A DNA stretch of 64,000 bases from Yarrowia lipolytica. Taxonomy: Eukaryota; Ascomycota; Dipodascomycetes; Dipodascales. Under the pieces are notes generated by a model. It ran no database searches, was not told the origin of the DNA, and saw only the letters and a program-made list of their open reading frames with translations. How positions within the stretch are numbered: the stretch's first letter is position 1; each line of letters begins with the position of its first letter. Positions 407 to 48,831 of this stretch are shown here, in pieces. Both the position numbers and the translations under genes were made by a program. The stretch spans positions 2,604,001 through 2,668,000 of the forward strand of contig NC_090771.1 in the NCBI RefSeq assembly GCF_001761485.1. The letters are read 5' to 3'.

Positions 407-526
407 GAATTGCAGCACCTAGGATTCTCGTATGGTCTCCCACTACAATACTAACTAGGCTCTCTGGTGCTTGACTATGGCTGATCGGACGGGAAGCCGT
501 ATTTTCACCAGGATATGGCCGCAACT
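407..526 (-). rRNA. 5S ribosomal RNA gene, solitary
   Basis: Read on the minus strand, the segment begins GTTGCGGCCATATC, contains TTCCCGTCCGATCA, then GTAGTGGGAGACCATACGAG, and ends AGGTGCTGCAATT. These are the hallmark blocks of fungal 5S rRNA in the right order and at the right spacing, over about 119 nt. A TTTT tract directly follows (minus strand, 406-403), as expected for a Pol III terminator. The bases immediately upstream (above 526) do not form a tRNA, so this copy is not one of the fused tRNA-5S units known in this yeast, and it would need the internal TFIIIA-type promoter. The exact 5' base (525 or 526) and 3' base are uncertain by 1-2 nt. Dispersed 5S genes outside the rDNA are known for Yarrowia. 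Confidence 0.9.
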
Positions 527-24685: not shown

Positions 24686-26764
24686 TATGCTGAAGATGAG
24701 TGAAGAAGAAAAGAAAGGTGGTGGTTGATTAGGTGCGATGTAAGAAATGTGCTGTGTGCTGATGTACGGGTGCGTACACGTTGTCTGTGTCTGTGTCTTT
24801 GCACGCTGCTGATGCTGGTGCTGTTAATTGTAGTGTTGGTGGGGTTGATGTTGTTCTACTGGAGATGTGGAAAAGGAGAAGAACACTCGGCTTTGTCCTT
24901 GTCCCGTTCGTACTATGGCACAGCCCAACCAAGCTTTTGGTTTGGCACGTTAAAAACGTTCAACCCAAATTGGCATTTGGCGCTACACGAGAGGCGCCAT
25001 AAAATGGTACCCGGAGAGGCGATAGAACCGTAGTGGACGCGTATATCTGTTCTATGATCACATATGAATGGATCAATCAAAATCCTGACTCTTTTTATAT
25101 CACTTTGACCCATCTAGAGGCGTCACATTCGTTCATGTTCATACTCCTACTCGGCTTTATGTAGCCCGGCAACCGTATTGTGGATCAGTACGACAAAAGG
25201 AGTCATCGAGAGAAGAAGTTAAGGACCTGATGGCAGAGGAGATAACACATTATCCAAACAGTAAAAAAACTCTCCTTCAGGATCCCCAAGCTCTCCCTTG
25301 CAATCGCCCCTTGAAGATGCGGTATTTGTGTGTGCCCAGATAATATTGTCCAGTCATCCTCTCCCTCTCCTCCACTTACCCCTGATGGGAAACTGACCCT
25401 AAAATATGCAGGTGTGGTGCGCGCTAATTCGCGTGCCAGCTCAAAAAAAGAGTTCCCCACTACTTGTAGCTGTTAATAGTGGCTTGGAGACGTGTCCAAG
25501 ATGCGAAGCCGGTTACCACGTGGATAATAATCCATCGCATGTGTTTCTGGCACCTCTAAAGCACCATCTTTTCCCTACATGATGACGATCAAAACCGTTG
25601 TCGCTTCTTTCCACTTTTCAAGACATGCCCTAAATTAACGTTGCCCCCTTGGCTCAAATAGACTTGGGATCGGAACCAGTAACAAAAGCGGTAGTGACAG
25701 AGATGGATAGGGCAATGATATTGACAGCTGTACAGCACACGCCCAATTCGTGTACAGTGCAATAGAATACATACGGTACGAATATACATTTGAACTGGTA
25801 AGTCACAGCGTCACGTGACATGAGAACATTAAGACTGTGCTGTAAGCGTTACATTATGCCCGATGCAAAGAACTCGGCTGTATTACGACAAATGTTTCAC
25901 ACAACTCCCATCTGTCTGTTTGGTTGCATTTAAAAAATGAGTTTAATGAGCCTAATGTCAAGTCGCCAATCGAGATCGACAACAGGAAGAATGGTAAACA
26001 GAAGGGAGGCGTCAGGGGATTTATGGCAAGATATTAGTCCTGACGTAGAGTGCAAGTGCTGTAATATCGTACTCGTGGGTCGGGGTAGGGTTTATCGTAT
26101 TTCTACTTGGTGTCTGTAACATCGCCTTTATTAGAGCGGTGATTCGAAAATTTTTTGATCCACCCACCCCCTCCCATCGGCCCCTTGAACAGCAGCTTGT
26201 TCTCCCTACAGACAAACCCAGAAACACATGTGGACGTGCAGAGATGACGCGGATCGCGCCAATCACGTGGGCAAAACACTGTCACATTCTTGGAACAATA
26301 ACAAAAGCTCGATAGACTCTTATTGTTTGCGATGGAATGTCGTGAGCAAAGTTCGTACAGATGCCCAGCCAGCAGTCGCGTGGGCCGAGCACCGCAAAAC
26401 ACGGACATCAAACAATAACAAACTATGCGAGTTGGTGCGTTAATTGAATACAGCGCGCACCTCTATCACGCCCTTCTTTAGAAAAATTTGCACCTGCGTT
26501 ATTGCACGAGGCCTGGCGCGTTATGTACACCCCCCGCCTCTAGTCAACTTCGCGACGAGAATTTTTTTCAACGTCGCGTTCCCGAGGCGACACACGTGAT
26601 ATAAGGGTTTATATGGATAAATCACGTGTTCTTTAATACAAAGGAAAAAATTCCGACCCCAAAGCTCCTTTTAATTGTCAATTAAATTCATTTAAAAATA
26701 AGGTCACGTGACTTTGGAAGGTTTAGATTGTATTGGTTCAACGACAAAAAATATAACGCGTGTT
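24686..26764. other. 2.1-kb intergenic region with CACGTG motifs before tRNA-Trp
   Basis: No coding region is recognised. The right half carries several CACGTG-class palindromes, including CACACGTGAT near 26592, ATCACGTGTT near 26621 and GGTCACGTGACT near 26702. The left half is the promoter of the PAL1-like gene. Confidence 0.5.
26590..26712. promoter_or_regulatory. Cluster of three CACGTG palindromes
   Basis: Three CACGTG cores occur within about 120 nt, the last within GTCACGTGAC, some 55 nt before the tRNA-Trp gene. CACGTG is bound by bHLH factors such as Cbf1, Tye7 and Pho4 in yeasts. Whether it serves the tRNA or a distant gene is unknown. Confidence 0.4.
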
Positions 26765-26851
26765 GATGTGGTGGCTCAATGGTAGAGCTTTCGACTCCAG
26801 TCAACTATGGTTGTAATCGAAGGGTTGCAGGTTCAATTCCTGTCCATGTCA
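26765..26851 (+). tRNA. tRNA-Trp (anticodon CCA) with a 15-nt intron
   Basis: A full cloverleaf can be drawn. The acceptor GATGTGG (26765-26771) pairs with CCATGTC (26844-26850), followed by discriminator A at 26851. The D-arm is GCTC/GAGC (26774-26788). The anticodon stem is TTCGA (26790-26794) with TCGAA (26817-26821), the variable loop GGGTT, and the T-arm GCAGG-TTCAATT-CCTGT (26827-26843). The anticodon loop is too long by 15 nt. With anticodon CCA at 26797-26799, the canonical position after base 37 places the intron at about 26801-26815. The D-arm through T-arm is almost identical to Saccharomyces tRNA-Trp, which also has an intron. No run of four T follows the gene until 26919, so the primary transcript probably extends past it. 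Confidence 0.95.
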
Positions 26852-26918
26852 TGTTAATGACAGTGGAGGAAAAAAGGCCGGTTTGATTCCGGTAGCTTCT
26901 CTAAGCTGATCAACACTA
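26852..26918 (+). ncRNA. Candidate small RNA co-transcribed with tRNA-Trp (C/D-box-like)
   Basis: The first Pol III terminator after tRNA-Trp is six Ts at 26919-26924, so about 67 nt of extra sequence should be in the same transcript. This segment has a 4-bp terminal stem (TGTT 26852-26855 with AACA 26912-26915), a weak C-box-like TTAATGA (26854-26860, 5 of 7 to RTGATGA) and an exact D box CTGA (26906-26909). It also contains a T-arm-like hairpin, GCCGG-TTTGATT-CCGGT (26877-26893), resembling a B box. It does not resemble 5S rRNA. It could be a snoRNA, a decayed tRNA 3' half or an extended trailer; I found no rRNA complementarity by eye. Confidence 0.4.
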
Positions 26919-26924
26919 TTTTTT
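26919..26924 (+). terminator. Pol III terminator of the tRNA-Trp unit
   Basis: Six consecutive Ts on the plus strand, the first run of four or more Ts after the tRNA-Trp gene. Confidence 0.8.
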
Positions 26925-27020
26925 CACGTCAGTAAGTGAGAATTTTTTTTTTTTGGTCACAATTCATTAACTTCTTACTACAAGTAGTACTTGTAATCAT
27001 TACATGGTCTCTTCGAGTTC

Positions 27021-28202
27021 TCAGATGTTGTCATTGGCTCCAACAGCAACAATGTTGGTCTCGTCAGTGTAGACAGCTTGAGCGACACCGATCTGGTAGT
27101 TGTCGAGATCGTAAACGGCGTATACAGATCTGAGGAACACATCGCCAAACAGAATGTTATCACTAGAATAATCTGTTGATTGGATGCCAAAAACACACTC
27201 TGTCTGGGTCTTATCGTCAAGCAACTCAGATAGGTGAAGAACGAGCTGGTCAGCTCCAAGAGTGATGTCGGTGTTTCCAAATGTCACGACAACATTGATA
27301 TCGGCATCGCAGGCGATGTACTGCAAGTTGGTGTCAGCATTGGTAGTTTCGTTTAGGTTGATATCACTGGACAGACCGTAGAAGACATCATTGGGCATAT
27401 AAATGTACGAGGTTCCAGAGTCAAAAACAGCAGCACTGGCTCGTCCATACGAATTTCCGTTCCAAGACACGTCGCTGTAGGGAACGGAGAAGTCGTCGTG
27501 GTCAGCCAGGTCCAGCACCTCCAGGTGACCAGAGTACTTAGCCGTATCAATGCCTCCTAGCAACAGAGTACCCTCAGTAGCATTAATGGAGTTCAGGTAA
27601 AGCGAGTAGACGGTTCGGTCAATCCATCCCTGGTTGACGAGCTGAACGGGGAAATTGGGGTACTCGTTCTTCACGAACACAACAGACTCAGAGCCCTGTA
27701 GAGAAATTCCAAGGATACCGCTCTGAGCAGAAGTGTGAGTTACAGCAGCAAACTGGAGGTTCTCGAGCTTCACCGACCCGATGGACAGAGTGTCAGTTCC
27801 CCAGTTACCAGTAGCATTATCACCAGAGACGTACTCGATAGAGTAGTTATTTCCAATGAAATGGTAGGAGGAAGAGTCGAGGGCATTGAACTGGCCGGTG
27901 AAGTCACAGGCGTGGTTCTCACAAGACTGTGTAGCGTTGGATGCGAACACCCAGAGGTCAGAAGATCCGGTGTCCAGAATCACGTTAAAGTCCTGAGCAG
28001 GAGTTCCCAGAGACAGAGCAACGGAGTAGTAGTACTCCTTGTTGGTGATTGGGATCTGGTAGGTTGAGGATCTCTTTGAAAGAGCAGGGTGACGAGTGGT
28101 GTTGTGGTGTCTGGTCACTGGCAAAGCCACTACCTTGGCAGCGGTAGGAGCTGCAAAAACTGTGGCAGCCAGAGTAGAAAGGAGGAGAGTAGATAGAAGC
28201 AT
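27021..28202 (-). CDS. Secreted aspartic protease (pepsin family A1)
   Basis: A 393-residue pepsin-like endopeptidase from the ATG at 28202. The N-terminus MLLSTLLLSTLAATVFA is a signal peptide, followed by a propeptide that ends at a Kex2-type Lys-Arg (ALSKR-SSTYQ). The two catalytic aspartates lie in VILDTGSSDLWVF and AVFDSGTSYIYMP. A Cys pair follows the first lobe motif (QSCENHAC), another lies in the C-terminal lobe, and several N-x-S/T sequons occur. No GPI-anchor tail is seen, so it is probably secreted rather than wall-anchored. An ATG 11 codons upstream (28235) is also in frame, but a TATATAA box at 28251-28245 is only about 10 nt from it and about 43 nt from 28202. That, and the cleaner signal peptide, favours 28202. 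Confidence 0.9.
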   Translation of the reverse strand: MLLSTLLLSTLAATVFAAPTAAKVVALPVTRHHNTTRHPALSKRSSTYQIPITNKEYYYSVALSLGTPAQDFNVILDTGSSDLWVFASNATQSCENHACDFTGQFNALDSSSYHFIGNNYSIEYVSGDNATGNWGTDTLSIGSVKLENLQFAAVTHTSAQSGILGISLQGSESVVFVKNEYPNFPVQLVNQGWIDRTVYSLYLNSINATEGTLLLGGIDTAKYSGHLEVLDLADHDDFSVPYSDVSWNGNSYGRASAAVFDSGTSYIYMPNDVFYGLSSDINLNETTNADTNLQYIACDADINVVVTFGNTDITLGADQLVLHLSELLDDKTQTECVFGIQSTDYSSDNILFGDVFLRSVYAVYDLDNYQIGVAQAVYTDETNIVAVGANDNI

Positions 28203-28244
28203 TGATCTTGTTTGTCTTATTTCAATCGAAGACATAAGGGTTGT

Positions 28245-46600: not shown

Positions 46601-48831
46601 CGGCATCGATTCAGCAATATGGTCTGTTCCGTTCTTCACCACCTTTTCCTCCTTGCCGTTTTCAATCACTGGATCCTCGTGCATGGCAATGTCTGCGGGA
46701 CCCGGCGTGTCGGCCTTGAGTTGCCTACCCTCCTTCTTGACCTCTTCCTTGAGCTCCTTGACCCTCTTGGAGTCGTCGTGTTTCACCTCGACGCCCTTCT
46801 TGCGAGCAATCTCCTCAGGCTCCTCAGGATGCGTGTCGGAGTATGTGTGGAGATCATGTTGGTGGCTAAGCGATGAGGCGTGCTTTGGGAGAGATTTTTG
46901 ATGCGGCTTCCTCAGTGGCCTGCTACCGTTTCTAGCAGGACTTGCGACATCTGGGGACGCGGAGCGATGCAGGTCACGTGGAAGGGGCGATTTACGCACC
47001 GACTCACGTGATAAGGAATCTCGTGCATCCCTGGTGTCGCGTGAAAACCTTCGCTCGTCACTCGGTGAGTTACACACCGAATTGGAAGCTGAGGCCGCTG
47101 CAGAAGCTGCAACTGCGGGCGGCACGCTCGGCGACTCGTTTTTGACAAAATGCGGGAACAAGTCATCCGCAGGAGGTACACGTGACACACTGCCATCCTC
47201 TACACGGTCACGTGAGAGGTCACGCGGGTCGCTCCGCAAATCTGGCCGGTCTCGTGGCGGAAGATCACGTGGATCACCGCGCGAATCTGACCGGTCGCGC
47301 GAGTGAGCGTCACGTGGGTCCCGAGGATCTGGTCGGTCGATTCCTCGATCTCTAGGATCGGGCCGGTCTCGTGGGTCTCGTAGATCAGGTCGGTCACGTG
47401 GATCCGGCCGGTCGCGTGGATCTCTCTCGGCGCCTCCCCGCGAGTCTCGTTTAGATCCTCCTCCTGGACCATCATCGTAACGGCGTCGGTTGTCGAACCG
47501 GCGGTCGTCCCAGCGGCGGTCGAAGCGCGGTGGTGTGTTGCCCTGGTAACGCGGGTCTGCTCCTCCGGGTCCAGGAGGGCCTCCTCCTCCTGGTGGGCCG
47601 CGATAGCCCCGGTTGTCTCGTTTACCTGTCAGGCTACGGGGACCTGTGGGAATCTCTTGTTTGAAGTTAGGGCCTGGTGGGCGCCGCTCGAATCGTCGGC
47701 GGTCGTCAAAACGGCGGTTCTGTGTTAGTAAAGGTTATGGATCTTGCAACGAGGGTACTGTGGTTGTAGCAAAAACAGCATGAGTGTCTGAGTGAGGAAC
47801 AGAAGCAGTCCCTACTCACATCAGACATGATAGTCAGTGGGTGCAGGGCAGCACAATGACAGCAGCGACGGTGGAGACAACTGTAACGGTGGCAGTGGTA
47901 GCATTGCATCTAAAGTCTCACTCGAAGCTCCCCAGAAGTGTCGATTGGTGGCCTACACACAATGTAAAGGTGGCACAGAAGTAGAGTTCTGGGTGCGTTG
48001 GTCCACAGCCGGTAGTGATGTTGGTGTTGATGGTGTGAACTCGTACATAGATGAGGTAGGGTATCTGACGTATAACAGAATGGTATTGCAATGTTACCTT
48101 TTTTCGATCGTTTGGGTTGCATCTGATTTGGATCGTTGAGGTACTGTGACACATCCTCCCCTCTATGCTTGGTCAAATATCTGCGGCTCAAGCAGTTGGG
48201 ACCTGGGCTGCATGCGCTGCTGTATCTGAGTCGGAACACGGAACAGCAACTGTTCAACATGGACTTGAACGGCAGAATCTGAACAGTAAGTGATGGAAAT
48301 TTGGTGGCGCCGTGACGGTACATCCATGTTCTGTTAAAAACATCGGGTATCGCGTGACCTGAATGAATGCAGATGGTATCTCAGAATGCCACGTAAACAT
48401 GGACCATGTTGTCCTCAATACCAACGTCAAGGAACGTGCTCGCGTCTCGAATGCCACTCGCTTCAAGGCTGTCGCCCGTTTCGCCCTCTCATCTCTTTTC
48501 TCTCTCCTTGGTATCACGTTGGTATCATCTTAGTCATCATCTTGAATTGTTCATTTTAGCCCCTAAAAACACGCCATAGTGCTCAGAACGCCTGCTCAGT
48601 GTACTGCCCGCGTCTCTCCTCTAGTTACACCCGTCAACCCACCTTTTTGTCACACTTTTCTCTCCGCTTTCACTCAACCTAGGCTCTCGTTCATGTCTCT
48701 CGGGTACTCACATCTTCCCTCCTCTGTCGTTTGTACTCGGCAGCCTCGCGTTCTCTTCTGCGACGCTCCTTGTCGCGTTCCTCCAGACGTCGCACATCTT
48801 GCGCAGACGACGACGGATAGTTGCCCGACAT
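42131..48831 (-). CDS. SNT1: Snt1-like SANT-domain corepressor (Set3 complex type), spliced
   Basis: A probable scaffold of a histone deacetylase complex related to yeast Set3C and animal NCoR/SMRT. The long open frame has no ATG at its 5' end, so upstream exons are required. Exon 1 at 48831-48712 encodes 40 residues (MSGNYPSSSAQDVRRLEERD...) up to donor GTGAGT at 48711. The acceptor TACTAACACAG ends at 47720 and exon 2 runs 47719-42131; phase 0, total 1,902 residues. Features: an Arg/Asp repeat region at about 90-190 (DPRDRPDPRDRPD), a long Lys/Glu/Ala-rich disordered part, the Snt1-type block YFSNRLLPRSERVAEMRYLR, a first SANT domain near 1,095-1,165 (FTAAEHELFCEAYAAHPKQF), a second near 1,276-1,323 (SYWSVNEVNLLPILIRSHGT), a run of 32 Gln near 1,397-1,428, and a Gln/Pro-rich C-terminus. 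A shorter alternative first exon (MSD, 47828-47820) also has a perfect donor. Confidence 0.85.
43553..43648 (-). repeat. Poly-glutamine tract (32 CAG/CAA codons) in SNT1
   Basis: Read on the minus strand this is an uninterrupted run of 32 Gln codons, mixing CAG and CAA so that the DNA repeat is interrupted. Further shorter Q-rich blocks flank it (42490-43550). Confidence 0.9.
46990..47450 (-). repeat. Arg-Asp/Pro-Arg-Asp repeats with CACGTGAC units in SNT1
   Basis: The coding strand repeats Asp-Pro-Arg-Asp / Arg-Asp-Arg, written as degenerate copies of CCACGTGACCGACC and GATCCACGTGAC. Several perfect CACGTG cores therefore occur inside the coding exon (for example near 47270, 47311 and 47396). 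Confidence 0.7.
47720..48711 (-). other. Intron of the SNT1-like gene (992 nt), with a nested alternative first exon
   Basis: Donor GTGAGTACCC at 48711; acceptor CTAACACAG ending at 47720. A 9-nt candidate exon (ATGTCTGAT, 47828-47820) with donor GTGAGTAGGG lies 100 nt before the acceptor, in phase 0, and could serve an internal promoter. Confidence 0.7.

What the first reader, a model, noticed from the sequence alone, without database searches (positions are those of the whole stretch)
26765..26924. Dicistronic-looking Pol III unit: tRNA-Trp plus a small RNA module
There is no run of four Ts between the tRNA-Trp and T6 at 26919, so transcription should continue about 70 nt past the tRNA. The extra segment has a terminal stem (TGTT/AACA), a D box (CTGA), a weak C box and an internal T-arm-like hairpin. 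Yarrowia is known to fuse tRNA and 5S genes; a tRNA fused to a snoRNA-like or other RNA would extend this strategy. This is the best candidate for an undescribed unit in the window.
Basis: partly seen in the sequence, partly recalled or inferred. Interest (0 to 1): 0.75.

Follow-up and report, generated by a model that had tools for sequence, protein, structure and literature searches.

The report
Known tRNA-Trp–RUF70 gene pair in Yarrowia
A yeast tryptophan-tRNA gene is followed, apparently in the same transcription unit, by a roughly 70-letter small RNA; such pairs have already been described in Yarrowia under the name RUF70, and I found no report of what the small RNA does.

Summary
A tRNA-Trp(CCA) gene lies at 26765-26851 (Rfam tRNA, 54.6 bits). 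No TTTT occurs between it and T6 at 26919-26924, so Pol III should read a 67-nt trailer. The 'dicistronic unit' reading is very probably right, but not undescribed: the Yarrowia lipolytica W29/CLIB89 genome paper (PMC5014426, section 11 and Table 4) counts 13 copies of RUF70 and says that copies lie downstream of tDNA-Trp(CCA), citing earlier work, Acker et al. 2008 among it (not held). I identify 26852-26918 as a RUF70 copy from position, length and host; no RUF70 sequence was available to compare. The snoRNA reading is not supported: C-box candidates are 2-3 mismatches off, a C/D-like arrangement as good occurs at 233 of 539 CTGA sites, and Rfam snoRNA hits are far below threshold. A 10-nt complement to a yeast 18S just upstream of the CTGA (reached at 5 of 539 sites, this one included) lies in a variable region of another yeast's rRNA. 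The least chance-like part is a T-arm/B-box-like hairpin at 26877-26893. RUF70's function remains open.

The parts
26765..26851 (+). tRNA-Trp(CCA) gene with a 15-nt intron (about 26801-26815); its internal A and B boxes should drive the unit
   Evidence: Rfam tRNA 54.6 bits, E 5.3e-09; anticodon and intron read from the sequence and a hand-built cloverleaf
26830..26840 (+). B box of the tRNA gene, GGTTCAATTCC
   Evidence: 1 mismatch to GGTTCGATTCC (the consensus is recalled)
26852..26918 (+). downstream segment, identified as a copy of RUF70 (RNA of unknown function, about 70 nt)
   Evidence: place behind tDNA-Trp(CCA) and length to the terminator; PMC5014426 section 11 and Table 4. No sequence comparison with another RUF70 copy was possible
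26858..26912 (+). predicted long imperfect hairpin of the RNA (stem 26858-26870 with 26897-26912)
   Evidence: minimum free energy -17.8 kcal/mol, z -1.64, 16 of 200 shuffles as good: not beyond chance on its own
26877..26893 (+). T-arm-like hairpin containing a B-box-like sequence (GGTTTGATTCC at 26880-26890)
26906..26909 (+).
   Evidence: one of 539 CTGA sites on both strands of the window; 233 have a C/D-like arrangement as good
26919..26924 (+). T6, first Pol III terminator of the unit (T12 at 26943-26954 as possible back-up)

Best explanation
This is one of the known tDNA-Trp(CCA)-RUF70 dicistronic Pol III genes of Yarrowia lipolytica. TFIIIC and TFIIIB assemble on the tRNA's A and B boxes. 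Pol III passes the tRNA end because no T-run is there, and stops at T6 (26919-26924). The 3' tRNA processing endonuclease (RNase Z) cuts behind the tRNA at about 26851/26852, giving pre-tRNA-Trp and a separate, oligo-U-ended RNA of about 70 nt that may fold as an imperfect hairpin. Shown here: the tRNA, the missing T-run, the length. From the literature: RUF70 copies behind tDNA-Trp. Inferred: read-through, RNase Z cut, protection of the U tail by La. The product's role is open; my guess is a structured RNA carried along and expressed by an essential tRNA gene, not a methylation guide. The second and third rivals below concern what RUF70 is and can be true together with this.
For: tRNA call at 54.6 bits. 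No T4 before 26919. 67 nt plus up to 6 U fits the name RUF70. PMC5014426 section 11: thirteen copies of RUF70, copies of it downstream of tDNA-Trp(CCA), dimeric RNAP3 genes abundant in Y. lipolytica (Table 4). The window fits that species: a dispersed 5S gene, G+C 48.9% against 49% for Y. lipolytica (PMC2911113 passage), fungal-type protein genes, and a lipase whose two best solved matches are 4jei 'Lipase 2' and 3o0d (that these are Y. lipolytica Lip2 is recalled). From memory only, the abstract of Acker et al. 2008 says that the 13 RUF70 genes lie 3' of the 13 tDNA-Trp copies, lack internal Pol III promoters, and are transcribed and processed in vivo.
Against: No RUF70 sequence was available, so identity rests on place, length and host. 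The species is inferred, not proven by an exact match. The primary paper is not held. PMC5014426 says that dimeric members are 5-26 nt apart and that the upstream one is followed by an abbreviated T tract; here only TT follows the tRNA closely, and with such a spacer the mature RNA would begin a few nt after 26852. That paper also disagrees with itself on whether RUF70 was annotated in CLIB122 (section 11 against the Table 4 footnote). The B-box-like element sits oddly with 'no internal promoter'.
Confidence: 0.91

Rival explanations
1. The downstream RNA is a C/D box snoRNA released from a tRNA-snoRNA precursor, as in plants; its guide (10 nt upstream of the CTGA) would direct methylation of a G in helix 44 of 18S rRNA.
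For: CTGA at 26906-26909. The 10 nt directly upstream are fully complementary to a Saccharomyces-type 18S (11 nt counting the C of CTGA, from 18S position 1685). Against 18S, 5.8S and the first 374 nt of 25S, 5 of 539 CTGA sites reach 10 nt, this one included. The size is typical (recalled).
Against: C-box candidates have 2-3 mismatches to RTGATGA; with a terminal stem of 4 bp or more only the 3-mismatch one remains, which 233 of 539 CTGA sites equal. Rfam snoRNA hits are far below threshold: snoR113 on the plus strand 14.6 bits against 47; snR77 16.2 against 50 and DdR1 12.3 against 70 on the minus strand. 3 of 60 shuffles reach the 11-nt match, and with G-U pairs allowed 58 of 60 do. The 18S stretch lies where the Rfam consensus is weakly conserved, and Y. 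lipolytica's own rRNA was not available.
Confidence: 0.06
2. The segment is only a long 3' trailer: the unit was copied together with tDNA-Trp, and the trailer RNA is a by-product without a role of its own.
For: The fold is not beyond chance. No Rfam family at threshold. Copies behind tDNA-Trp could reflect duplication of the whole unit (inference).
Against: A published annotation treats it as an RNA gene with 13 copies, and the recalled 2008 abstract reports efficient transcription and processing in vivo.
Confidence: 0.3
3. RUF70 is the remnant of a second, tandem tRNA gene that kept the T arm and part of the acceptor strand.
For: T-arm-like hairpin with a near-consensus T-loop; GTGGAGG resembles GTGGTGG of the tRNA 5' end. 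PMC5014426 reports nine tDNA pseudogenes and many dimeric RNAP3 genes.
Against: The two-block similarity to tRNA-Trp is weak: 55 of 1000 shuffles and 76 of 1000 window 67-mers score as high. The single local alignment is no better than shuffles (198 of 500).
Confidence: 0.15

Closest known systems
[quoted passage not shown] Acker et al. 2008 recalled)
   Same: Leading tRNA, order, about 70 nt length, no full terminator between the two members; host as far as it can be inferred
   Different: No difference established; sequence could not be compared. The tRNA is not closely followed by a T tract, which the paper mentions for dimeric genes in general
Dicistronic tRNA-5S rRNA genes of Y. lipolytica and Trichomonascus vanleenenianus (PMC13130702 passages)
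   Same: Pol III fusion led by a tRNA gene
   Different: The second member here is not 5S: Rfam finds no 5S at this place, and similarity to the window's own 5S is at chance (371 of 500 shuffles score as high)
Plant tRNA-snoRNA dicistronic genes (recalled; the term occurs in papers of the listing, which I did not open)
   Same: tRNA followed by a small RNA in one precursor
   Different: No valid C box here; C/D arrangement at chance level

Membership tests
tDNA-Trp-RUF70 dicistron | leading gene is tDNA-Trp(CCA) | tested here: met
   Rfam tRNA hit and CCA anticodon read from the sequence
tDNA-Trp-RUF70 dicistron | no full Pol III terminator until about 70 nt behind the tRNA | tested here: met
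   first run of four or more T is T6 at 26919-26924
tDNA-Trp-RUF70 dicistron | sequence similarity to other RUF70 copies | not testable with these tools
   no genome held for the window; exact-pattern scans of viral contigs and genome contigs found none, but these collections are not of yeasts
tDNA-Trp-RUF70 dicistron | no internal Pol III promoter (recalled from the 2008 abstract) | tested here: inconclusive
   a B-box-like GGTTTGATTCC, 1 mismatch, lies at 26880-26890; no A box seen by eye
tDNA-Trp-RUF70 dicistron | separate stable RNA made and processed from the joint transcript | not testable with these tools
   needs RNA data
C/D box snoRNA | C box RTGATGA near the 5' end | tested here: not met
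   best candidates 2-3 mismatches
C/D box snoRNA | D box CTGA with flanking terminal stem | tested here: inconclusive
   CTGA present; TGTT/AACA possible but unused in the predicted fold
C/D box snoRNA | guide complementary to the organism's own rRNA | not testable with these tools
   only a Saccharomyces-type rDNA piece (L001, a contaminant) could be compared
tRNA-5S dicistron | 5S rRNA as second member | tested here: not met
   no 5S hit here

The most novel reading that the evidence does not exclude
RUF70 is a lineage-specific regulator tied to tRNA-Trp: its 5' part can pair with the tRNA 3' end across the expected RNase Z site (14-bp hairpin within 26837-26871), which would make it a switch for tRNA-Trp processing; or, with degenerate boxes, it guides 18S modification. 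One sequence excludes neither.
Probability: 0.07. Interest if true: 0.65.

Novelty: already known. Interest (0 to 1): 0.25.

Why it matters
Such units show how a tRNA promoter can carry a second small RNA that needs no promoter of its own. A search of the held library for RUF70 finds one paper, and the passages of it that I read state no function; other literature was not searchable. The window is therefore an anchor for an open question about a known RNA, not a new class.

Tried and rejected
C/D snoRNA: C-box mismatch scan with the window's 539 CTGA sites as control and Rfam at a loose E-value: rejected as a membership claim. 5S relic: alignment to the window's own 5S is at chance (371 of 500 shuffles). 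tRNA relic: weak. tRNA-trailer hairpin: 1 of 500 shuffles in a first test; on repeating with four window choices, 13 to 79 of 2000 shuffles and 24 to 178 of 2000 trailers drawn from the window, so a lead only; the gain for the whole precursor is not significant (45 of 200 shuffles), and the longest perfect complement of tRNA and trailer, 5 nt, is at chance (60 of 60 shuffles). H/ACA idea: an ACA lies 3 nt before T6; this spacing occurs at 12 of 468 T-runs on both strands, and the 19 nt from the upper stem to ACA (counted by hand) do not fit the recalled 14-16 nt rule; dropped. Conservation: no yeast genomes are held; exact-pattern scans of viral contigs and genome contigs and a distant search of plasmids found nothing, which says nothing about Yarrowia.

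Full report
What is there. Rfam finds one tRNA gene in the window, at 26765-26851 on the plus strand, 54.6 bits. Reading the sequence gives anticodon CCA (26797-26799) and a 15-nt intron. ARAGORN finds nothing without introns, and with introns the same gene with a shifted intron and the label Arg(CCT). Behind it the first run of four or more T is T6 at 26919-26924, then T12 at 26943-26954.

Is it more than chance? A 67-nt stretch without TTTT is ordinary (7503 of 9134 sampled + strand stretches); the point is its place behind a tRNA. The fold of the trailer is only mildly stable (-17.8 kcal/mol, z -1.64, 16 of 200 shuffles as good). The T-arm-like hairpin at 26877-26893 is the least chance-like part: three hairpins of that type occur on both strands of 64 kb, one being the tRNA's own T arm. 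Sequences within one mismatch of GGTTCGATTCC number 3 in the window (tRNA, trailer, one elsewhere) against a mean of 0.97 in shuffles, and 8 of 100 shuffles reach 3. The hairpin was picked out after the fact, so no exact odds are claimed.

What it is. The genome paper of Y. lipolytica W29/CLIB89 (PMC5014426; [quoted passage not shown] It is the only held paper that contains the word RUF70. It cites Acker et al. 2008, which is not held. From memory, that abstract describes RUF70 as a novel putative Pol III RNA of about 70 nt, with 13 genes 3' of the 13 tDNA-Trp copies, transcribed and processed in vivo. The window fits this species: a dispersed 5S gene at 407-526, G+C 48.9% against 49% (PMC2911113, passage), fungal-type protein genes, and a lipase closest to 4jei and 3o0d among solved structures. 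Identification of 26852-26918 as RUF70 is by place, length and host, not by sequence. Two details fit less well: the paper speaks of spacers of 5-26 nt and an abbreviated T tract behind the upstream member, and only TT follows the tRNA here.

How it works. The tRNA's A and B boxes recruit the Pol III machinery; the polymerase reads through to T6; tRNA 3' processing frees the trailer as a separate RNA. Read-through follows from the missing T-run; the later steps are inferred from general tRNA processing and the recalled abstract.

Is it a snoRNA? CTGA exists, but an acceptable C box does not: candidates differ from RTGATGA at 2-3 of 7 positions, and an arrangement as good as the one with a 4-bp terminal stem exists at 233 of 539 CTGA sites. 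Rfam at E up to 10 gave three snoRNA hits in 26700-27000, at 12.3-16.2 bits against thresholds of 47-70, one of them (snoR113) on the plus strand. One lead remains: the 10 nt before CTGA are complementary to the 18S of an rDNA found as a contaminant in a Planomonospora assembly; that it is Saccharomyces-type is my recognition of the sequence, since Rfam says only eukaryotic. Five of 539 CTGA sites reach 10 nt against the available rRNA pieces, this one included; 3 of 60 shuffles reach the 11-nt match, and 58 of 60 do if G-U pairs count. The 18S stretch is weakly conserved in the family, so it may not exist in Yarrowia.

Other readings. Similarity to the window's 5S is at chance and similarity to tRNA-Trp is weak. 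The tRNA 3' end can form a 14-bp hairpin with the first trailer bases; its rarity depends on the stretch chosen (13 to 79 of 2000 shuffles, 24 to 178 of 2000 window controls; 1 of 500 in a first test), and the gain for the whole precursor is not significant (45 of 200).

Verdict. A correct observation of an already described kind of unit. I found no report of the second RNA's function in the library searched; the snoRNA label is not supported.

Noticed in passing
window 407-526 (-): A 5S rRNA gene (97.9 bits) with no tRNA hit in front of it: a stand-alone dispersed 5S copy, with TTTT directly behind it.
   Followed up: partly
window, whole; densest at 46975-47400: CACGTG occurs 42 times against a mean of 17.4 in 100 shuffles (none reaches 42); seven lie within 46975-47400 and three at 26593-26710, upstream of the tRNA. 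Possibly binding sites of a bHLH factor such as Cbf1 (recalled).
   Followed up: partly
L001 2050-4963: Yeast-type rDNA (18S, 5.8S, start of 25S) inside the assembly of the bacterium Planomonospora parontospora JCM 3093 (BMQD01000062.1): a contaminant.
   Followed up: partly
window 26837-26871: The tRNA-Trp 3' end and the first trailer bases can form a 14-bp hairpin that would bury the expected RNase Z cut site; statistical support is weak.
   Followed up: partly
window 27021-28235 (-): An aspartyl protease gene (Pfam Asp) points towards the unit and ends about 96 bp behind its T6 terminator.
   Followed up: no
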